A DNA stretch of 64,000 nucleotides from Streptomyces sp. MP131-18 (lineage in GTDB: Bacteria > Actinomycetota > Actinomycetes > Streptomycetales > Streptomycetaceae). A program made the translations under genes and the position numbers. The DNA lies in the NCBI RefSeq assembly GCF_001984575.1, contig NZ_LZNS01000001.1, positions 6,812,729 through 6,876,728 of the forward strand, read 5' to 3'. Positions 40,569 through 59,030 of this stretch are shown here, piece by piece; the first letter of the stretch is position 1; each line of letters starts with the position of its first letter. A model generated the notes under the pieces. That model was not told the origin of the DNA. It saw nothing but the letters and a program-made list of their open reading frames with translations, and searched no databases.

Positions 40569-41030
40569 TCAGAAGTAGTACCGGGTGACCGTTTCCGCGG
40601 CGCAGACCGGTTTGGTGCCCCCCTCGCGCTCCACGGTCACCGCGAGCGCGGTCTGGATACCGTCGGGGACGTCCGTCACCGAGGCCAGGCTGCCGGTGGC
40701 CCGGATACGGGAGCCGGCCGGCAGGGGGGAGGGGAAACGCACCTTGTTGGTCCCGTAGTTGAGGGCCATGCGGACGCCCTCCACCCGGATCAGATCCGGT
40801 AGCAGGGCCGGCAGCAGCGACAGCGTCAGGTACCCGTGGCCGATCGTCGACCCGAACGGGCCGTGCGCCGCCCGCTCGGGATCGGTGTGAATCCACTGGT
40901 GGTCGCCCGTCGCCTCGGCGAAAAGATCGATCCGCTGCTGGTCCACCGTCAGCCAGTCACTGACACCCAACTGCTCGCCCACCGCGGCACGCAGCGCGTC
41001 CGGCGAGGTGAAGATACGCGGCTCCGTCAT
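40569..41030 (-). CDS. MaoC-like dehydratase (R-specific enoyl-CoA hydratase type)
   Basis: A 153-aa hot-dog-fold protein. The hydratase-2 motif is present: FAEATGDHQWIHTDPERAAHGPFGSTIGHGYLTLSL with catalytic Asp and His. It would hydrate trans-2-enoyl-CoA or a related thioester. TATCCT lies 6 nt before the ATG, suggesting a leaderless transcript. It is alone rather than in a fatty-acid operon. Confidence 0.9.
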   Translation of the reverse strand: MTEPRIFTSPDALRAAVGEQLGVSDWLTVDQQRIDLFAEATGDHQWIHTDPERAAHGPFGSTIGHGYLTLSLLPALLPDLIRVEGVRMALNYGTNKVRFPSPLPAGSRIRATGSLASVTDVPDGIQTALAVTVEREGGTKPVCAAETVTRYYF

Positions 41031-41092
41031 CCCGCCAGGATACTCGCCGGTAGCAAGAGGGGAACGGGGCCGTGCGGACCGCCGGACCCGGG

Positions 41093-41428
41093 TCAGACGA
41101 CCTGGTCGAGCCAGGGCTCCTTCGGCCGGTACCCGCAGGTGCATTCCCGCGGCAGGCCGTGGCCGCCCGGCGCCCTCCCGCGGCACGGGGCCGGCAGGTG
41201 CCGCCGATGGCCGCACGAGGCGCACGGCCACGTCTCAGGTCCGCCCACGTCCGCGGGCTTCGGCCAGAACTCCCGGCAGCCGCAGGGCCGGGGCGCGGCG
41301 CCACCGGCCCGGCTGCCGGTCGTTCCCCGGCACCGGCCGTCGACGAGGACCAGCCGGTCGTGGTCCGCGCGCGGATGCCCGCACTCCCGGCACTCCTGCA
41401 CCTGCCACGCCATGCCGCCACTCGTCAT
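41093..41428 (-). CDS. Small cysteine-rich (zinc-ribbon-like) protein coupled to the imine-reductase gene
   Basis: A 111-aa protein with ten cysteines in groups: CRECGHP, GRC, PCGCREF, PCASCGHRR, PC and CTCGYRP, suggesting two or three zinc sites. Its ATG overlaps the stop of the upstream gene (ATGA). It is basic and His/Pro-rich, without signal peptide. No family was recognised. Coupling to the enzyme gene may be functional or historical. Confidence 0.65.
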   Translation of the reverse strand: MTSGGMAWQVQECRECGHPRADHDRLVLVDGRCRGTTGSRAGGAAPRPCGCREFWPKPADVGGPETWPCASCGHRRHLPAPCRGRAPGGHGLPRECTCGYRPKEPWLDQVV

Positions 41429-42387
41429 CCGCGCCCCCCGCCTCCGTTCCCGTGCGTCCCATTCCGCGACCCGGTCCGCGTCACGTGGGAACCGGCCATC
41501 GGCTCGGCGAGCCTGAGGCGCCGCACCGCGGTCGGGGCACCTGCCACCACGTGGCCCTGGCCGAGCAGGTCCCTCAGCCCCGCGAGGGACAGCTCCAAGT
41601 GGGCCGGATCGACCCCCGCCGCGCGTGAGGCGTCCACGATGTTCGCCATCGCGGCGATCTGCAAGTCGAGCGTCTGGACGAGCCGCGGCTCGGCGCCCGA
41701 CTCCCGTTCCGCATCCACCTCCGCGGCGAAGGCGGGCAGCACCCCGGCCATGTTCACCAGCCAGCGCACGAGCAGCCCGGTGAAGCCGGCCGCGGTGCCC
41801 TCCGGCCGCGAGGTGGCCATCGCGACCGCGTGATGGAAGCCCTCGAACATCAGGTTCATCCCGCTCAGCAGGGCCAGGTCGTAGAGCGAGGCGAGACCGG
41901 TGTCCGCGCCGAGGTACCTCGCCTCGCCCAGCACCTCGATCACCTCCCGGTGCGCGTCGAAAACGCGCTGCTGACCGCTGTAGAGGAAGAACGCGTCCGG
42001 GGTGGCGACGGTCGTCGGAATGGCCATGATGCCGCCGGCCAGGAAGTCCGCACCGTGCCCGGTGACCCAGGCCGACAGCTCCTCGGCCTGTGCGGGCGTG
42101 CCGGTGGTGAGATTGACGACCGTGCGGCCCGCCAGCTGCCCGGCCACCGGTTCCAGGGTCTCCAGCACGGACCCGTGGTCCAGCAGGCACACGATGACCA
42201 GGGGACTCGCGGTCACCGCCGCCTCGACCGAGTCGGCGCGCGACGCGCCGCGCGCCACCAGCTCGTCCCCCTTGGCGGCGGTGCGGTTCCACACCGTGGC
42301 CGGCCGGTCGGCGGCGAGCAGGGCGGCGGCCAGGGCCCGGCCCATCTCGCCGAGGCCGAGCACGCTGACCTGGGCGTTGTTGCTCAT
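41425..42387 (-). CDS. Imine reductase-like NADPH-dependent oxidoreductase (IRED / 6PGDH superfamily)
   Basis: A 320-aa protein: Rossmann motif VLGLGEMGRALA (near 10-20) with the WNRT NADPH-phosphate loop, the IRED motif NLTTGTPAQAEELSAWVTGHGADFLAGGIMAIP, and YDLALLSGMN holding the Asp used as catalytic residue in many IREDs. It reduces imines or related C=N bonds; natural substrates are mostly unknown. GAGGGAG precedes the ATG. The frame is open further upstream without any stop into the TetR relic at 42942, which is unusual. Confidence 0.85.
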   Translation of the reverse strand: MSNNAQVSVLGLGEMGRALAAALLAADRPATVWNRTAAKGDELVARGASRADSVEAAVTASPLVIVCLLDHGSVLETLEPVAGQLAGRTVVNLTTGTPAQAEELSAWVTGHGADFLAGGIMAIPTTVATPDAFFLYSGQQRVFDAHREVIEVLGEARYLGADTGLASLYDLALLSGMNLMFEGFHHAVAMATSRPEGTAAGFTGLLVRWLVNMAGVLPAFAAEVDAERESGAEPRLVQTLDLQIAAMANIVDASRAAGVDPAHLELSLAGLRDLLGQGHVVAGAPTAVRRLRLAEPMAGSHVTRTGSRNGTHGNGGGGRG

Positions 42388-42454
42388 GTGGGTACTCCCT
42401 CGGGTGCGCTGATCGCTGTCGTTCCTCACCCTCACGGAGGCGACCTGGCGGCAC

Positions 42455-42480
42455 AAGTACCCACAATGAAGTGCGTACTT
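42455..42480. promoter_or_regulatory. Inverted repeat AAGTAC-N14-GTACTT upstream of the imine-reductase gene
   Basis: AAGTAC (42455-42460) and GTACTT (42475-42480) form a dyad 68 nt before the ATG. The sequence resembles HxlR-type operators, which commonly lie between IRED-like genes and divergent HxlR regulators. No hxlR gene is present here; the TetR relic begins immediately beyond. Confidence 0.5.
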
Positions 42481-42485
42481 ACCCA

Positions 42486-42942
42486 AAGGTGCGTGGTGCC
42501 GCCGCCTGCCGGGTGGGGTGGGTGCGGTGCCGTAGCGGAGTCCGTCGACGAGCAGGGCGACCATGCGCCGGGTGTGGCCGTTGTCGTCGTCCTGTGCCGG
42601 CAGGGTCAGGTTGCGGGTGGCGAGCAGCAGGTCTTCCGGGGCGACGTCGGGGCGGATCTCGCCGGCTTTCGCCGCGGTGTCGAGCAGGGTGCCGAGGACG
42701 GGCAGCAGGCGCTGTTCGAAGCAGGAGGGCAGGGCGCCACAGGCCGGGTCCCCCGAGTGCAGGGCGGCGCTCAGTCCGCGTTTCGTGGCGATGAAGGCCG
42801 TGAAGCGCCGGAGCCGCTTGGTGAGTGCTTCGGCCGGTGCGTGCCGCGCGGCGAGGGGGGATGCGGCGTCGGCGCGCACGCGCCTGCGGGGCTCTCCGCC
42901 GGCCGCGCCGGCGTCGGCTTCCTGTGTCGCGTCCTCGCTCAC
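42486..42942 (-). pseudogene. TetR-family regulator lacking its DNA-binding domain
   Basis: The frame begins GTG 42942 with an AAGGGAG site and reads RRRVRADAA, the usual lead-in to a TetR HTH. It then jumps to the ligand-binding domain (PAEALTKRLRRFTAFIATKRGLSAALHSGD, FEQRLLPVLGTLLDTAAKAGEIRPDVAPEDLLLATRNL). The roughly 50-60 residues of the helix-turn-helix are missing without loss of frame. No stop codon ends it; the frame runs on into the imine-reductase gene. It could be a dead gene or a trimmed, non-DNA-binding protein. Confidence 0.75.
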
Positions 42943-42975
42943 GATGCTCCCTTGCTCCCCTGCTCACTTGCTAAG

Positions 42976-43016
42976 CGGAACACCGTTCCGTATTGTCTGG
43001 GCTGAACGCTGTTCCG
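42976..43016. promoter_or_regulatory. TetR-type operators before the aldo/keto reductase
   Basis: CGGAACACCGTTCCG (42976-42990) is a perfect palindrome with 6-bp arms; GAACGCTGTTC (43004-43014) is a second, shorter one with the same half-site. They lie between the TetR relic and the aldo/keto reductase and are the expected sites of the regulator before it lost its HTH. Confidence 0.7.
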
Positions 43017-43069
43017 TTTATGCGGCGTAGCGCGCTGCATCGGGCACCGGCCAACGCACAAGGAGCTTC

Positions 43070-44098
43070 ATGAAGTACCGCCCACTGGGCCGAACCGGCA
43101 TCAAGGTCAGCCCGTACTGCCTCGGCGCGATGAACTTCGGCGCCATCGCCAACACCGACCACGAGGACTCCGTCCGGATCATCCACAAGGCGCTGGGCGC
43201 GGGCATCAACTTCGTCGACACCGCCGACGCCTACTCACACGGCGAGTCCGAAGAGATCGTCGGACGCGCCCTCAAGGGCCGCCGGGACAACGTCGTGCTC
43301 GCCACCAAGGCCCACCTGCCGATGGGGGACGACCCCAACCAGCAGGGCAACTCGCGGCGCTGGCTGGTCCGCGCGCTGGAGGACTCCCTGCGCCGCCTGG
43401 GGACCGACCACGTCGATCTGTTCCAGATCCACCGGCCCGCGCCGGACACCGACGTGGAAGAGACCCTCTCCGCCCTCACCGACCTGATGCGCGCGGGCAA
43501 GGTCCGCGCCATCGGCAGTTCCACCTTCCCCGCCTCGGACATCGTCGAGGCGCAGTGGGTCGCCGAGCGGCGCGGCCTGGAGCGGTTCCGCACCGAGCAG
43601 CCGCCGTACTCGATCCTCGACCGCGGCATCGAACGCGAGGTGCTGCCCGTCTGCGAGCGCTACGGCATGGGCGCCCTGGTCTACAGCCCGCTCGCGGGGG
43701 GCCTGCTCACCGGCCGCTACCGCAAGGGCCGGCCGGCCGACACCCACCGGGCCGGCTACGGTTTCGCGTTCATGAGCGACGAGCGCCGGCTCGACGCCGT
43801 CGAGCGGCTCATTCCGCTCGCCGAGGAGGCGGGGATGCCGCCGGCGCACCTGGCCATGGCCTTCGCGATCGCCCACCCCGGCGTCACCTCCGCAATCATC
43901 GGACCGCGCACCATGGAGCACCTCGACGACCTGCTCGCCGGCGCCGGGACCACGCTGACCGAGGACATCCTCGACCGGATCGACGCCATCGTGCCGCCCG
44001 GCACCGACGTCAGCGCGCTCGATATGACCTACGACCCACCCGCGATCCAGCAGACCGCGCTGCGCCGCCGCACATCCGGCGAACGGTCCGCCGCCTGA
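43070..44098 (+). CDS. Aldo/keto reductase
   Basis: A 342-aa NADPH-dependent reductase. The catalytic tetrad is complete: Asp50 and Tyr55 (VDTADAYSHGES), Lys80 (ATKAH), His121 (FQIHRP). The YSPLAGGLLTGRY block and the C-terminal IIGPRTMEHLDD fit the family. AAGGAG precedes the ATG. It is divergent from the TetR relic and has TetR-type operators in front, so it was probably its target and may now be constitutive. Confidence 0.93.
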   Translation: MKYRPLGRTGIKVSPYCLGAMNFGAIANTDHEDSVRIIHKALGAGINFVDTADAYSHGESEEIVGRALKGRRDNVVLATKAHLPMGDDPNQQGNSRRWLVRALEDSLRRLGTDHVDLFQIHRPAPDTDVEETLSALTDLMRAGKVRAIGSSTFPASDIVEAQWVAERRGLERFRTEQPPYSILDRGIEREVLPVCERYGMGALVYSPLAGGLLTGRYRKGRPADTHRAGYGFAFMSDERRLDAVERLIPLAEEAGMPPAHLAMAFAIAHPGVTSAIIGPRTMEHLDDLLAGAGTTLTEDILDRIDAIVPPGTDVSALDMTYDPPAIQQTALRRRTSGERSAA

Positions 44099-54566: not shown

Positions 54567-54848
54567 TCAGCGCGGCAGCAGCGGGCCGAGGGGGCCCAGG
54601 TCGAGGTTGAGGTCCTCGGGTGCGAGGTCGTGCTGGGCGCACAGCTGATCCATCCGCTCCGACAGGAGCATCAGCGTCAGCCCGATCCGCTCCTCCTGCC
54701 GCTCGTCGAGGTCGCCGTGCTCGACCCGGCGCAGCGCTTGGCGCTCCATCAGCTGGCGCAGCAGTTCGATGACGGTGAGCACCAGCCGCATCAGGTCACG
54801 TTCCACGGTGTCGCGGTCCATCTCGATCCGCGCTTCTCGTGCGTTCAT
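54567..54848 (-). CDS. gvpK: Gas vesicle protein GvpK
   Basis: A 93-aa GvpK: RDTVERDLMRLVLTVIELLRQLMERQALRRVEHGDLDERQEERIGLTLMLLSERMDQL is the conserved helical core and DLNLDLGPLGPLL the end. Last gene of the leftward gvp operon; its start overlaps gvpS (ATGA). Its stop is 11 nt from the convergent flavoprotein gene, with no visible terminator between them. Confidence 0.93.
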   Translation of the reverse strand: MNAREARIEMDRDTVERDLMRLVLTVIELLRQLMERQALRRVEHGDLDERQEERIGLTLMLLSERMDQLCAQHDLAPEDLNLDLGPLGPLLPR

Positions 54849-55054
54849 ATGTCCTCTTCCGTGCCGTCCGTGGCCGCCAGGGCCGTCTGTCCGGCGGCCG
54901 GTGCGACGGAACTGACCAGCGCCCGCAGGTCGATGCGCACCAGGTCCACGTCGGCGATCCGCAGCGTCAGGTTGCCCGTGAGCACCACACCGCCCGCGAG
55001 CAGCCGGTCGAGCAGGTCGACCAGCGCGATCTCGCGCGTTGCAAGTTCGTTCAC
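54845..55054 (-). CDS. gvpS: Gas vesicle protein GvpS (GvpA/J family)
   Basis: A 69-aa small GvpA/J-family protein: TREIALVDLLDRLLAGGVVLTGNLTLRIADVDLVRIDLRALVSSV. GTG start overlapping gvpL (GTGA). Its position between gvpL and gvpK matches GvpS in S. coelicolor. Minor shell or nucleation component. Confidence 0.9.
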   Translation of the reverse strand: MNELATREIALVDLLDRLLAGGVVLTGNLTLRIADVDLVRIDLRALVSSVAPAAGQTALAATDGTEEDI

Positions 55055-55884
55055 GTCGCGTTCTCCCGGGCCGGCTCCGGGGCCGAGTCCGGGTCCGGAG
55101 CCAGATCGTTCACCTGCGCGAACGAGTACGGCGCCCAGGGCCCGGTCAGGTTGAGCCGCGGGCCGCACAGCTGCCCGGCCAGCCGCCCGACCAGGGCGCA
55201 GAACTCCTGTTCGCGCTCCTGCGGTACGAGGTAGGCGCCGTTCAGCAGGTTGCGGCCGGACTCGCCGGACAGCCGCGGGTCCTGGGGGCGGTGCAGGCGG
55301 GACTGCTCGGCGACGGCGTCGAGGTCCAGGTGCACCGCCCGTGCGGTCTCCTCCGCGCGCCGCCACGCCTCGTCGTCCGTTGTGCGGCGCCGGGCGCGCT
55401 GCCGCAGGTAGTCGCGGCCGGTGGCGGGCGCCGTCTCGGTGCGCTCCGGCGCGTCGGCGAACACCTTCACGCCCCATTCGGCGCGGCCCGCCAGCCGGCT
55501 GATCGCTTCGAGGAAGCGCTCCTGGTTGGCCGACAGCAGCCGCCGCACCCCCGCGGTGTCCCGGCAGACCGTGGCGAGGCGCAGCGGCAGCACGCAGCCG
55601 GGGTCCGCCGTCAGCGCGTCGATCACACGCTGGTGGCCCCGGGCCGTCGCCTCAAGCCAGGCCAGGTCCTCCAGATGCCGCCGCAGCGGCTCCTCGGCGA
55701 AGTCCGCCGCGGGTACCGCGCCCACCACCGCCGTGAGGTCGTCGTGCGGCACCGCGCACAGCGGGGCGCCGTCCACGCCGCGCAGCCCGTCCGGCGGCGG
55801 CGGGCCCGCGGCCGGGGTGACCGCGTACACGTACCAGTAGCGCCGTTCCCCGTCGGCGAGCGTCCCCGTTCCGGTGTCTGTCAT
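55051..55884 (-). CDS. gvpL: Gas vesicle protein GvpL (GvpF/L family)
   Basis: A 277-aa GvpF/L-family protein: YWYVYAVTPA start, VLPLRLATVCRD, GVKVFAD and GAYLVPQEREQEFCALVGRLAGQL, ending LTGPWAPYSFA. These are chaperone-like proteins binding GvpA during vesicle assembly. ATGA overlap with gvpJ. Confidence 0.93.
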   Translation of the reverse strand: MTDTGTGTLADGERRYWYVYAVTPAAGPPPPDGLRGVDGAPLCAVPHDDLTAVVGAVPAADFAEEPLRRHLEDLAWLEATARGHQRVIDALTADPGCVLPLRLATVCRDTAGVRRLLSANQERFLEAISRLAGRAEWGVKVFADAPERTETAPATGRDYLRQRARRRTTDDEAWRRAEETARAVHLDLDAVAEQSRLHRPQDPRLSGESGRNLLNGAYLVPQEREQEFCALVGRLAGQLCGPRLNLTGPWAPYSFAQVNDLAPDPDSAPEPARENAT

Positions 55885-56222
55885 GGCGTCTCCTCCTGCC
55901 GCGTCTCCAGGGCAGCGACGCGGTCGCGCAGCCGTTCGATCTCGCGGTCGGGCTCCCGCGAGCGCGCGCCGGAGGACAGGGACGGGTCGTGCTCCCACCA
56001 GTCGATGCCCATTTCCTTCGCCTTGTCGACGGAGGCCACCAGCAGCCGGATCTTGATGGTGAGCAGCTCGATGTCGAGCAGGTTGACCCGGATGTCCCCG
56101 GCGATCACCACGCCCTTGTCCAGCACCCGTTCGAGGATGTCCGCCAGGTTGGCGCTGCCGCCGCCGGTCTCGGAGAGGGAGGGCGCGCCGCCGTACGGGC
56201 CGCGCATCGCGGGGGAGGTCAT
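55881..56222 (-). CDS. gvpJ: Gas vesicle structural-type protein GvpJ (GvpA/J family)
   Basis: A 113-aa protein with the GvpA/J core SANLADILERVLDKGVVIAGDIRVNLLDIELLTIKIRLLVASVDKAKEMGIDWW and a charged tail (REPDREIERLRDRVAALETRQEE) forming a short coiled coil. Named GvpJ from position in the conserved order; GvpA is the alternative reading. ATG overlaps the gvpZ stop. Confidence 0.9.
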   Translation of the reverse strand: MTSPAMRGPYGGAPSLSETGGGSANLADILERVLDKGVVIAGDIRVNLLDIELLTIKIRLLVASVDKAKEMGIDWWEHDPSLSSGARSREPDREIERLRDRVAALETRQEETP

Positions 56223-57118
56223 GACCGCGCGTCCTTGTCGTTCTCCTCCTCCGTCTGTGCGTCGCGCTCCTCGCGCTCCTCGGCGGCGGCCTCGTCGTGG
56301 CCGACGGCCACTTCGCCGTGGTCGATCTCGCCGCGCCAGTCGCCGGTGGCCTCGCCGCGCAGCATCAGGAACCTGCGGAAGTTCTTCAGGTCCAGCCGGG
56401 CCCTGCGGCCCTGGGCCCGCCACAGCGCGCCGGTCCGCTCCATCAGGCCCTTGGGGTAGTACTCGATGACCAGCAGCACGCGCGTCAGCGTCTCGCCGAG
56501 CCGGTGGAAGGTGACGACGCCCTTCGTGGTGCCCTTGCCGCCCTCCGAGGTCCAGGCGATCCGCTCGTCCGGCACCTGCTCGGTGATGTGGGCCTGCCAG
56601 CTCCGCTTCGCGAACGCCACCTTGGCCCGCCAGTTCGTGGTCGTGTCGTCGACCTGGTCGACGCTCTGCACGCCCTTGGCGAAGCCGGAGAACTCCTGGA
56701 ACTGCGTCCACTGGTCGTACGCCTCGCGCACCGGAACGCCGACGTCGATGTCCTCCACGACCGTCAGGAACTTGCCGCTGCTGCCGTTCTTGCCGCCATC
56801 CTTGCCGCCGTTCTTGCTGCCCAGGTGCGGCAGGTGCGGTTTGGGCACCGTGGAGACGACCTTGTCCTTCAGTCCGGTGGCGCCCGCCTCGACGGCCGCG
56901 CGCACCGGGCCCTTGCCCTCGGCGGTCTTCTTGCCCGTCGTCATCGCGAGTTTCACGGCTCCCGTGCTCCTGCCCTCTGCTATGTCGGTCAGCTTGGCCG
57001 TCGCCCGGCCGAGGCCGTGGCTGGTCCTGACGAGCAGCCGCTCGGCCTGGGCCGTCGCGAAGGCCGCGGCCTCCTGCTTCACGCGGTCACCGGGACTGGG
57101 TTTCGCCGTGTCAGTCAT
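56219..57118 (-). CDS. gvpZ: Gas vesicle-associated SRPBCC-fold protein (GvpZ-like)
   Basis: A 299-aa protein. The first 115 residues are helical and Lys/Gly-rich (SKNGGKDGGKNGSSGK linker). Residues about 120-260 are a START/polyketide-cyclase-type domain (VVEDIDVGVPVREAYDQWTQFQEFSGFAKGVQSVDQVDDTTTNWRAKV). The tail is acidic. This matches the GvpZ slot of actinobacterial clusters. Its role in vesicles is not established. It overlaps gvpY by eight bases. Confidence 0.87.
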   Translation of the reverse strand: MTDTAKPSPGDRVKQEAAAFATAQAERLLVRTSHGLGRATAKLTDIAEGRSTGAVKLAMTTGKKTAEGKGPVRAAVEAGATGLKDKVVSTVPKPHLPHLGSKNGGKDGGKNGSSGKFLTVVEDIDVGVPVREAYDQWTQFQEFSGFAKGVQSVDQVDDTTTNWRAKVAFAKRSWQAHITEQVPDERIAWTSEGGKGTTKGVVTFHRLGETLTRVLLVIEYYPKGLMERTGALWRAQGRRARLDLKNFRRFLMLRGEATGDWRGEIDHGEVAVGHDEAAAEEREERDAQTEEENDKDARS

Positions 57119-57587
57119 CCTTCTCGCCTCCGCCCGACCGCTTGGCCTGCGTGCTCTTCGCGGGCTGCTTGGCGGCCCGCTTCGCCGGCGCGGCCGACGT
57201 GGCGGACTTGGCCTTTCCCGCCGAGCCGCCTGCCGAGCCACCCGCCGCCCGGCCGGTCTTCGCCCCGGCTCCGCTCGCGGTCTTCTTCGCGGTGTCCGCG
57301 GCCTTGCCACCGGTATCCGCGGCCTGCGAGGCCGCGCCGTTCAGCTGCTCCTGCACCGCCTCGGTCCTGCCGTGCAGGCCGTCGGCCAGGTTGTCCAGCG
57401 GGCCGGCGACGAGCGAACGCGCGGTCCCGCGCAGCTGGTCGCCCGCCCGGAGCAGTCTGGGGTTAGTCAAGTCGACTTTTCTGGCCACCGCGATTCCGCC
57501 GAGCGCCAGTGCCAGCTTGGCCTTCTTCGTCCGGCCGAGCACGTAACCCGTGGTCACGGCAAGGCCCAGTGCCATTCTGTTCGTCAA
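57111..57587 (-). CDS. gvpY: Gas vesicle cluster protein GvpY-like
   Basis: A 158-aa protein: hydrophobic N-terminus (NRMALGLAVTTGYVLGRTKKAKLALALGG), then a DLTNPRLLRAGDQLRGTARSLVAGPLDNLADGLHGR segment and a long Ala/Lys/Gly tail of low complexity. The TTG at 57587 overlaps the gvpG stop (TTGA) and follows the operon's coupling pattern; ATG 57575 and an upstream TTG are alternatives. Position matches GvpY; function unknown. Confidence 0.82.
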   Translation of the reverse strand: MTNRMALGLAVTTGYVLGRTKKAKLALALGGIAVARKVDLTNPRLLRAGDQLRGTARSLVAGPLDNLADGLHGRTEAVQEQLNGAASQAADTGGKAADTAKKTASGAGAKTGRAAGGSAGGSAGKAKSATSAAPAKRAAKQPAKSTQAKRSGGGEKDD

Positions 57588-57832
57588 CGTGTCATCCAAT
57601 CGTGAGTGGGCTGGAGGCGGTCGAGCAGTTCGTCCTCCCGCCGATCGAACTCCGCCTCGTCGATCGCGCCGTTGATCAGGTCCTCCTCCAGGGCCGCCAG
57701 CTCCCGCTGCACCACCGCCGGGTCGTAGAACGTGCGTTCCGCCTCCGCCACGACCTGCCCCAGTACCCAGCCCGCGCCGCGGGCCGGGGCGAGGGGCAGC
57801 ATCAGCAGCTCCCGCAGCAGCCCGAAGGCCAT
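57584..57832 (-). CDS. gvpG: Gas vesicle protein GvpG
   Basis: An 82-aa GvpG: LLRELLMLPLAPARGAGWVLGQVVAEAER and the acidic helix RELAALEEDLINGAIDEAEFDRREDELLDRL. Small helical assembly factor. Its ATG shares one base with the gvpF stop (TGATG). Confidence 0.93.
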   Translation of the reverse strand: MAFGLLRELLMLPLAPARGAGWVLGQVVAEAERTFYDPAVVQRELAALEEDLINGAIDEAEFDRREDELLDRLQPTHDWMTR

Positions 57833-58572
57833 CAGGCGACCTCGGCCGGTTCGGTCCGCACGAAGCTGTACGGGGGGAGCGGCCCGCTGACCCGCAGGTC
57901 GAGCTGCGGGCTCGCCTCCCGCAGCTCCTCGACGGCCGCGAGGAAGCCGGCGGCCTCGTCGCGCCCCACCAGGTAGGAGACGTTGACCACCCGGCCCGTG
58001 CCCTCGGGGCCCGGCAGGCTCGCGCCCGCGTGCGGGGCGAGTGCCTCCTCGACGGTGCGCGCGTCCTCGGCCTCCCGGTCCCGCACCGCCTCGGCCACCA
58101 GCCGGCCGAGCCGCAGCCTGTCCTGGTAGGTGGCGTCGCCGCCGGTCCTGGTGGTCTCGTTCAGCCGCCGGATCTCGGGGCTCTCGTCGAGGACGCGCCG
58201 CAGCACGACGTTCTCGTGGTGCATGGCCTTGACGTTGTACTCGACGCGGTCCGCCACGTGGTCCAGCTGCTCGCGGTACAGCTCGGCGTGGTCGGCCAGG
58301 GCCGAACGGACCGCCGCGTCGTCGGGCGACACGCTGCCGAACCGCAGCGGCAGCACCGCGCCGCCCGCCGCGGCCACCGTCAGCACCCGCTGGTGGGCGA
58401 ACAGATCGCGCCGCTTGGGGCGCAGCCCCGGCGGGCAGTCACTGACGATGGCGGTCATGCCCGCGGAGCGCAGCACGCGCACCGGGCGCGGCGGGTCGCC
58501 CACGCCGGCCAGCCCGTCTGGGAGGAGGCGCGGCGTACCGGCCCGCGCGATGCCGTATACGTAGGTGGTCAT
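57832..58572 (-). CDS. gvpF: Gas vesicle protein GvpF (GvpF/L family)
   Basis: A 246-aa protein with TTYVYGIARAGTP, VLPLRFGSV, VEYNVKAMHHENVVLRRVL and SYLVGRDEAAGFLAAVEELREASPQLDLRVSGPLPPYSF, the complete GvpF/L pattern. Chaperone for GvpA. ATGA overlap with gvpA. Confidence 0.94.
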   Translation of the reverse strand: MTTYVYGIARAGTPRLLPDGLAGVGDPPRPVRVLRSAGMTAIVSDCPPGLRPKRRDLFAHQRVLTVAAAGGAVLPLRFGSVSPDDAAVRSALADHAELYREQLDHVADRVEYNVKAMHHENVVLRRVLDESPEIRRLNETTRTGGDATYQDRLRLGRLVAEAVRDREAEDARTVEEALAPHAGASLPGPEGTGRVVNVSYLVGRDEAAGFLAAVEELREASPQLDLRVSGPLPPYSFVRTEPAEVA

Positions 58573-59030
58573 TCCGCGTCCTTTTCCCGCCGGGACGACG
58601 TGCTCGAACGGCGGGTGCGGCGCGGCTCCTTCTCGGCCTCCTCGCCCTCGCTCTCGCCGTCCTTGCCCTGCCGGAACGCGTCGGAGATGGTCTCTGCGGC
58701 GCCCGCCAGGGCGCCCTTGGTCTTGCCGCGTGCCCCCGATTCGGTCACGGACCCGACCAGTTCTGGCACGCCCGGGTCCTTCTTCGGCCCGGCCTCCAGG
58801 TCGAGCCGGTTGCACGCCTCGGCGAAGCGCAGGTAGGTGTCGACGCTCGCCACCACGACCCGGACGTCCACCTTCAGAATCTCGATCCCGACCAGCGAGA
58901 CCCGGACGAACGCGTCGATCACCAGCCCGCGGTCGAGGATGAGTTCCAGCACGTCGTAGAGGGTGCCGGAGCCGCCGCCCCCACCGGCTCGGTTCGCCGT
59001 CGGCTGTGTTGTCGCGACTGCTGTGGTCAT
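58569..59030 (-). CDS. gvpA: Gas vesicle main structural-type protein GvpA, with long C-terminal tail
   Basis: A 153-aa protein with the GvpA core GTLYDVLELILDRGLVIDAFVRVSLVGIEILKVDVRVVVASVDTYLRFAEACNRLDL. Cyanobacterial GvpA is about 70 aa; the extra 75 residues here are charged and Ser/Arg-rich (KEPRRTRRSSTSSRREKDAE), as in streptomycete homologues. AGGAGG precedes the ATG. Whether it builds true vesicles is unknown. Confidence 0.92.
   Translation of the reverse strand: MTTAVATTQPTANRAGGGGGSGTLYDVLELILDRGLVIDAFVRVSLVGIEILKVDVRVVVASVDTYLRFAEACNRLDLEAGPKKDPGVPELVGSVTESGARGKTKGALAGAAETISDAFRQGKDGESEGEEAEKEPRRTRRSSTSSRREKDAE

What the first reader, a model, noticed from the sequence alone, without database searches (positions are those of the whole stretch)
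41425..42942. HTH-less TetR relic in frame with an imine reductase
The TetR frame jumps from RRRVRADAA straight to its ligand domain, so the DNA-binding helices are cleanly gone. The frame then runs without a stop through a former promoter region into the imine reductase, giving one 505-codon open frame. The inverted repeat AAGTAC/GTACTT at 42455 looks like an HxlR operator whose gene is missing. Two deletions, or one recombination, seem to have joined unrelated loci, possibly freeing both flanking enzymes from control.
Basis: partly seen in the sequence, partly recalled or inferred. Interest (0 to 1): 0.62.

Follow-up and report, generated by a model that had tools for sequence, protein, structure and literature searches.

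The report
Repressor gene missing its DNA-binding part
In a Streptomyces-like bacterium a repressor gene has lost exactly the piece that grips DNA, probably by a slip between two short repeats, while the DNA sites it would have gripped are still intact, so the enzyme gene beside it is probably no longer under local control; this is a tidy but ordinary case of gene decay.

Summary
The 505-codon frame 42942..41425(-) holds an SbtR-like TetR ligand domain (TetR_C_43), a 47-codon linker and an imine-reductase-type enzyme, without a helix-turn-helix (HTH). All 31 related loci examined keep the HTH. In the 23 measured the missing piece is exactly 63 codons; in five of these a 10-bp direct repeat (GCGCCGACGC) bounds it, 189 bp apart, of which the window keeps one copy. 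So this is one in-frame deletion, most likely by repeat slippage. The two putative TetR operators before the divergent aldo-keto reductase (AKR) are intact; 16 of 16 scanned relatives have the pair. Best reading: a loss-of-function repressor allele whose AKR promoter has probably lost its local repressor. The "missing HxlR" half is weaker: the operator is conserved, but 8 of 18 imine-reductase loci with it also lack an adjacent hxlR, so its absence does not show a local deletion. The open run into the reductase is cheap: 63% of random 47-codon stretches here are open, and one joint in three is in frame. The reductase keeps its own putative ribosome-binding site, start and operator, so a fusion protein is possible but not indicated. 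Interest is low.

The parts
42529..42942 (-). HTH-less TetR relic (codons 1-138); TetR_C_43 ligand domain at 42535-42840
   Evidence: Pfam TetR_C_43 E 4.6e-16, no TetR_N; relatives intact; end of the relic at DGLRYG
42866..42875 (-). Single remaining copy of GCGCCGACGC, the joint of the 189-bp (63-codon) deletion
   Evidence: two copies 189 bp apart in G166, G196, G204, G376 and G399; one copy in the window
42388..42528 (-). In-frame linker of 47 codons; the junction between tetR-derived and reductase-derived DNA lies inside it
   Evidence: the 23 relatives' TetR proteins end 2 to 15 residues after LRY; reductase-type upstream DNA includes the operator; exact junction inferred
42455..42480 (-). 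HxlR-type operator AAGTACGCACTTCATTGTGGGTACTT, 67 bp before the imine reductase start
   Evidence: only exact match in the own genome; conserved before imine-reductase-type genes; binding by an HxlR is inferred from linkage
42395..42401 (-). Putative ribosome-binding site (GAGGGAG) of the imine reductase
   Evidence: sequence; by eye
41425..42387 (-). Imine-reductase-type enzyme (NAD_binding_2 + RedAm-like_C), 320 codons, own ATG; the last 20 or more residues lie beyond most alignments with relatives
   Evidence: Pfam; imine reductase structures in PDB; 70% identical homologue in G228
42976..42991 (-). Putative TetR operator 1 (ACGGAACGGTGTTCCG), intact
43002..43017 (-). Putative TetR operator 2 (ACGGAACAGCGTTCAG), 26 bp from operator 1
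   Evidence: paired sites in 16 of 16 relatives scanned
43070..44098 (+). Divergent aldo-keto reductase, the presumed target of the lost repressor
   Evidence: Aldo_ket_red E 4.7e-74; beside intact tetR in relatives

Best explanation
This is a loss-of-function allele of a local TetR repressor. Shown: an intact SbtR-like tetR, divergent from an AKR gene across a pair of CGGAACNNNGTTCCG-like sites, recurs in the genus; in the window exactly 63 codons holding the whole TetR_N domain are gone, the sites are not. Inferred: the loss came by slippage or annealing between two 10-bp repeats. Inferred: the leftover protein cannot bind the sites, so the AKR promoter and the tetR promoter are no longer repressed by it. 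Inferred: the tetR transcript can now run into the imine reductase, which sits downstream with its own operator, putative ribosome-binding site and start and is mostly translated from there. The reductase came to lie behind tetR by an unrelated insertion or recombination; its operator is probably served by an HxlR elsewhere or is orphaned.
For: No TetR_N in the frame. 31 of 31 related loci examined keep the HTH (23 by protein sequence and motif distance; 8 by tblastn; TetR_N itself was confirmed by Pfam in two). The gap is 63 codons in 23 of 23, and the 10-bp repeat is present twice in 5 of 23. TetR_N is at residues 33-78 of an intact relative, inside the gap. The two sites lie 26 bp apart in the window and two sites are present in 16 of 16 relatives scanned, against 0.0095 sites per shuffled copy of the window's intergenic stretch. 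The relic departs from 4 of 43 otherwise invariant positions (W->R, Y->C, D->G, Y->C), the most of 18 rows. Reductase homologues carry the operator with or without hxlR.
Against: The relic has no stop or frameshift, and its branch omega is 0.119, clearly below 1 (2dlnL 17.9) and not above the all-branch value of 0.083 (2dlnL 0.68). So either the deletion is recent or the ligand domain still matters. The AKR of this lineage also departs most from invariant positions (12 of 225), so the relic's excess is not specific to it. Only 5 of 23 relatives have both repeat copies, so the ancestral repeat is inferred. A paralogue with the same kind of site (G000:C1:3585255) could still repress the AKR. No reads or second strain were available.
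Confidence: 0.72

Rival explanations
1. The 505-codon frame makes a real fusion protein: the ligand-binding and dimerisation half of a TetR joined to an imine reductase, perhaps a ligand-sensitive enzyme.
For: One frame without a stop; ligand domain without frameshifts and with branch omega 0.119; the tetR start codon and upstream sites are kept.
Against: 63% of random 47-codon stretches are open and one joint in three is in frame; the reductase keeps its own putative ribosome-binding site, start and operator; radical changes in the ligand domain; none of the 15 other matching genomes among the 392 covers the linker to its end.
Confidence: 0.07
2. The short TetR is a functional non-DNA-binding partner that pairs with a full-length SbtR-like paralogue and tunes its activity.
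For: TetR proteins dimerise through this domain (recalled); 14 other frames in the genome match TetR_C_43 at E <= 0.001, 12 of them over the cut-off, one only with its neighbours in the frame; one has the same type of site; omega below 1.
Against: The paralogue with the site is only 40% identical over the compared stretch, so pairing is unlikely; substitutions at conserved positions; no relative with the short form was found.
Confidence: 0.06
3. The AKR remains controlled in trans: a paralogous SbtR-like regulator occupies the intact CGGAACNNNGTTCCG sites, so the deletion changes little.
For: The paralogue at G000:C1:3585255 is full length with TetR_N, and a perfect site lies between it and a divergent gene.
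Against: It has one site, not the pair, and differs in the recognition region (GLGTIYRHFPTR against GAGTLYRHFPQR).
Confidence: 0.12
4. One reading: hxlR was deleted here and one recombination fused the two loci, freeing both enzymes.
For: The nearest reductase (G228, 70%) has an adjacent divergent hxlR and the operator with 4 mismatches; no HxlR-like frame at E <= 1e-3 in the window.
Against: The other three members of the same clade (G280, G205, G114) have the operator without adjacent hxlR (for G205 only about 1.5 kb upstream was held), so loss in the window is not separable from an unlinked state; the HTH deletion is a separate event at a separate place.
Confidence: 0.15
5. Assembly or sequencing artefact.
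For: Only one genome shows it.
Against: The repeat is 10 bp, far shorter than a read; the contig is 7.86 Mb; the gap is a clean 189 bp in frame.
Confidence: 0.03

Closest known systems
SbtR-like TetR regulators (Pfam TetR_C_43; SbtR of Thermus thermophilus)
   Same: C-terminal ligand domain over the curated cut-off; divergent target gene and palindromic sites
   Different: No DNA-binding domain in the window; the site differs from the published SbtR consensus TGACTGGCCAGTCA (PMC4948773, passages seen)
Imine reductase / reductive aminase family (NAD_binding_2 + RedAm-like_C)
   Same: Both domains over cut-off; PDB matches include named imine reductases and reductive aminases, e.g. 5ojl, 3zgy; the top-scoring entry bears a hydroxyisobutyrate-dehydrogenase-like name
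   Different: Preceded in frame by a TetR relic; a C-terminal tail beyond most alignments
HxlR-controlled imine reductase loci of the genus
   Same: Operator of the same pattern and length 67 bp before the start; about 34-136 bp in the 18 operator-bearing loci
   Different: No adjacent hxlR, as in 8 of those 18 loci
Repressor inactivation by short-repeat deletion (general mutational class, recalled)
   Same: Precise deletion between direct repeats that leaves one copy
   Different: In frame, so the rest of the gene still reads through

Membership tests
TetR family regulator | N-terminal helix-turn-helix (TetR_N) | tested here: not met
   Absent from the Pfam scan and no tblastn match; present in the two intact relatives scanned with Pfam
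TetR family regulator | C-terminal ligand/dimer domain of a known TetR subfamily | tested here: met
   TetR_C_43, 59.4 bits against a cut-off of 27
TetR family regulator | Palindromic sites at the divergent promoter | tested here: met
   Two sites, one with 0 and one with 1 mismatch to CGGAACNNNGTTCCG; binding not tested
Imine reductase / reductive aminase | NAD_binding_2 fold plus RedAm-like C-terminal domain | tested here: met
   68.8 and 63.7 bits
Imine reductase / reductive aminase | Reduction of imines with NADPH | not testable with these tools
   Needs an enzyme assay
HxlR-linked imine reductase unit | Adjacent divergent hxlR | tested here: not met
   No HxlR-like frame in the window at E <= 1e-3 nor beside the reductase
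HxlR-linked imine reductase unit | Conserved palindromic operator upstream | tested here: met
   0 mismatches
TetR-imine reductase fusion protein | Single polypeptide of 505 residues made in the cell | not testable with these tools
   Only an open frame is shown

The most novel reading that the evidence does not exclude
The repressor's ligand pocket has been captured as the N-terminal sensor of an imine reductase, giving a one-chain enzyme whose amount or activity responds to the repressor's old ligand.
Probability: 0.04. Interest if true: 0.6.

Novelty: new member of a known kind. Interest (0 to 1): 0.2.

Why it matters
It is a natural repressor knock-out with its binding sites left intact and a conserved comparison set, so the AKR's control and the paired site could be tested directly. 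The survey also predicts two operator motifs: paired CGGAACNNNGTTCCG for the SbtR-like AKR regulator, and AAGTACNCAC-N6-GTGNGTACTT for imine reductases. The second often stands without a linked hxlR, which points to control in trans. That may help in waking silent reductases for biocatalysis.

Tried and rejected
HxlR remnant in the window: none at E <= 1e-3; with the second profile and no filters, matches of E 0.05, 5 and 5.9 lie in other genes. HxlR paralogues of the own genome with the operator beside them: of 15 neighbourhoods, only the one beside the paralogous reductase has a site within 5 mismatches (3), and it lies behind the hxlR 3' end. Sigma-70-type promoters and terminators in 41000-43200: none found, uninformative for this genus. 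Rfam over the window: no match at gathering score. Relaxed selection by branch omega: not shown for the relic; in the AKR the window branch has 0.126 against 0.056 for all branches (2dlnL 6.14, p about 0.013 before correction for 13 tips). In some searches the relic set was 18 of the 24 rows: five more distant rows (G070, G184, G047, G050, G105) and G407 (same protein as the S. albus row) were left out; the AKR set was the 13 of these 18 with an AKR in the held stretch. The search for related loci in genome contigs gave 3 loci and may leave out near kin of the window's own genome. Literature: searches for imine reductase + HxlR + Streptomyces (0 papers), HxlR operator terms (2 and 2 papers, listings only) and TetR + AKR + Streptomyces + divergently + operator (0) gave nothing on point; HTH-less TetR terms gave nothing on point in the listing; of the SbtR papers I saw passages of one. 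No structure prediction was run.

Full report
What is there. The frame 42942..41425(-) runs 505 codons from a GTG. Pfam finds TetR_C_43 at residues 35-136 and the two imine reductase domains from residue 191 on, and no TetR_N. TetR homology ends at DGLRYG, residue 138; the reductase starts at residue 186; 47 codons lie between. The reductase has its own ATG at 42387, with GAGGGAG 8-14 bases before it. A divergent AKR starts at 43070. No tool names the genus of the window; the three named loci nearest to the relic are Streptomyces.

The HTH deletion. Relatives were found by protein search in 295 genomes drawn from the genus (24 with a match at E <= 1e-20, own included), in 392 genomes (16 at E <= 1e-38, own included; the two draws overlap) and in genome contigs (3 loci). 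I measured the gap in 23 relatives: 15, 5 new ones and the 3. Two of them, S. albus and G407, have the same protein. The remaining 8 I tested for the HTH alone. All 31 keep it. In all 23 the distance from the RADA-type motif to the CADA-type motif is 63 codons. In five (G166, G196, G204, G376, G399) both motifs carry the 10-bp GCGCCGACGC, 189 bp apart; the window has one copy, with the left flank of the first and the right flank of the second. In an intact relative TetR_N covers residues 33-78 and TetR_C_43 starts at 98, so the gap takes the whole DNA-binding domain and, by recalled TetR anatomy, the early part of the connecting helix. The simplest cause is slippage or annealing between the repeats; that the window's own ancestor had both copies is inferred.

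The TetR sites. Of the 23 relatives, 16 have the AKR in the held stretch. All 16 have two CGGAACNNNGTTCCG-like sites (0-2 mismatches) between tetR and AKR, and so has the window, at 26 bp spacing; shuffled copies of the window's stretch give 0.0095 sites. The other 7 were not scanned. In the own genome the 16-base pattern ACGGAACNNNGTTCNG has seven exact hits at six places, two of them here; with up to one mismatch there are 22 forward and 25 reverse hits against 5 and 3 for the backward control. One other exact place lies between a full-length SbtR-like paralogue and a divergent gene; another lies inside a long coding frame and is probably chance. Fifteen frames match TetR_C_43 at E <= 0.001, the relic included.

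Is the relic decaying? It departs from 4 of 43 columns invariant in the other 17 rows (W->R, Y->C, D->G, Y->C); the next rows have 2. But the AKR of this lineage also departs most, 12 of 225, against at most 7 in the other 12 rows. The relic's branch omega is 0.119, not above the all-branch 0.083 (2dlnL 0.68) and well below 1 (17.9); the AKR's is 0.126 against 0.056 (2dlnL 6.14). The deletion therefore looks recent, or the domain still matters; the data do not tell which.

The reductase and its operator. The palindrome at 42455-42480 is the only exact match in the own genome. In 36 reductase loci of the genus (20 loci and 15 further places from the DNA matches, plus the own paralogue; not a random sample), 18 have it with at most 4 mismatches, a threshold chosen. 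Sixteen have an adjacent divergent hxlR; 10 have both, 6 have hxlR without the operator at that threshold, 8 have the operator without hxlR, 12 have neither. For six of those 8 (L071, L140-L144) at least 4 kb upstream and 6 kb downstream of the start were held with no HxlR-like frame; for the other two (L036, L158) only about 1.5-2.5 kb. The HxlR profile, made here from three proteins and then their matches, finds 14 of the 15 Pfam-positive places of the own genome at E <= 1e-4, one of them a seed. In the reductase tree the window pairs with G228 (98/95), which has hxlR; the three next rows (G280, G205, G114; the last with under half of the columns filled) have none. Absence of an adjacent hxlR is thus common in its own clade, and an unlinked HxlR is plausible. 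Which HxlR, if any, binds is not known.

The open run. Of random stretches of the window, 65% of 42 codons and 63% of 47 codons are stop-free; with one joint in three in frame, about one such joint in five gives an open fusion frame. tetR-AKR pairs of relatives lie in several differing neighbourhoods, and some tetR (G048, G036, S. albus) have no such AKR in the 16-18 kb held, so the juxtaposition with a reductase needs no special event beyond ordinary rearrangement.

Verdict. A confirmed, cleanly deleted repressor with its sites left behind, beside an independently regulated reductase. The two-locus fusion story is only partly supported. The expected effect, derepression of the AKR and read-through into the reductase, is inferred and testable.

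Noticed in passing
L065:2082-2107 (G000:C1:4547581-4547606): A 3-mismatch copy of the reductase operator lies between a gene resembling glyceraldehyde-3-phosphate dehydrogenase (name recalled from its N-terminus) and the 3' end of the hxlR that is divergent from a paralogous imine reductase, not in the hxlR-reductase gap; it may be chance (control).
   Followed up: partly
window 41425-41510: The reductase ends in a Gly/Arg/Thr-rich tail beyond most alignments with its relatives (the best alignments end at residues 292-311 of 320).
   Followed up: no
L071, L140-L144: Imine reductase genes with a palindrome of the HxlR type (0-2 mismatches) but no HxlR-like frame within at least 4 kb upstream and 6 kb downstream of the start.
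   Followed up: yes
L125 (G000:C1:6808781, about 4 kb before the window start): Another SbtR-like TetR frame beside a divergent gene that resembles an aldo-keto reductase by eye, without a GGAACNNNGTTC-type site in the stretch.
   Followed up: no
window 54567-59030: A run of small genes whose starts look like a gas-vesicle (gvp) cluster; name recalled, not tested.
   Followed up: no
window 58285-58377: ARAGORN reports an odd tRNA with a four-base anticodon inside a called protein gene; probably spurious.
   Followed up: no
window 41093-41428: Cys-rich 111-codon frame directly after the reductase, without a Pfam match at E <= 0.001.
   Followed up: partly
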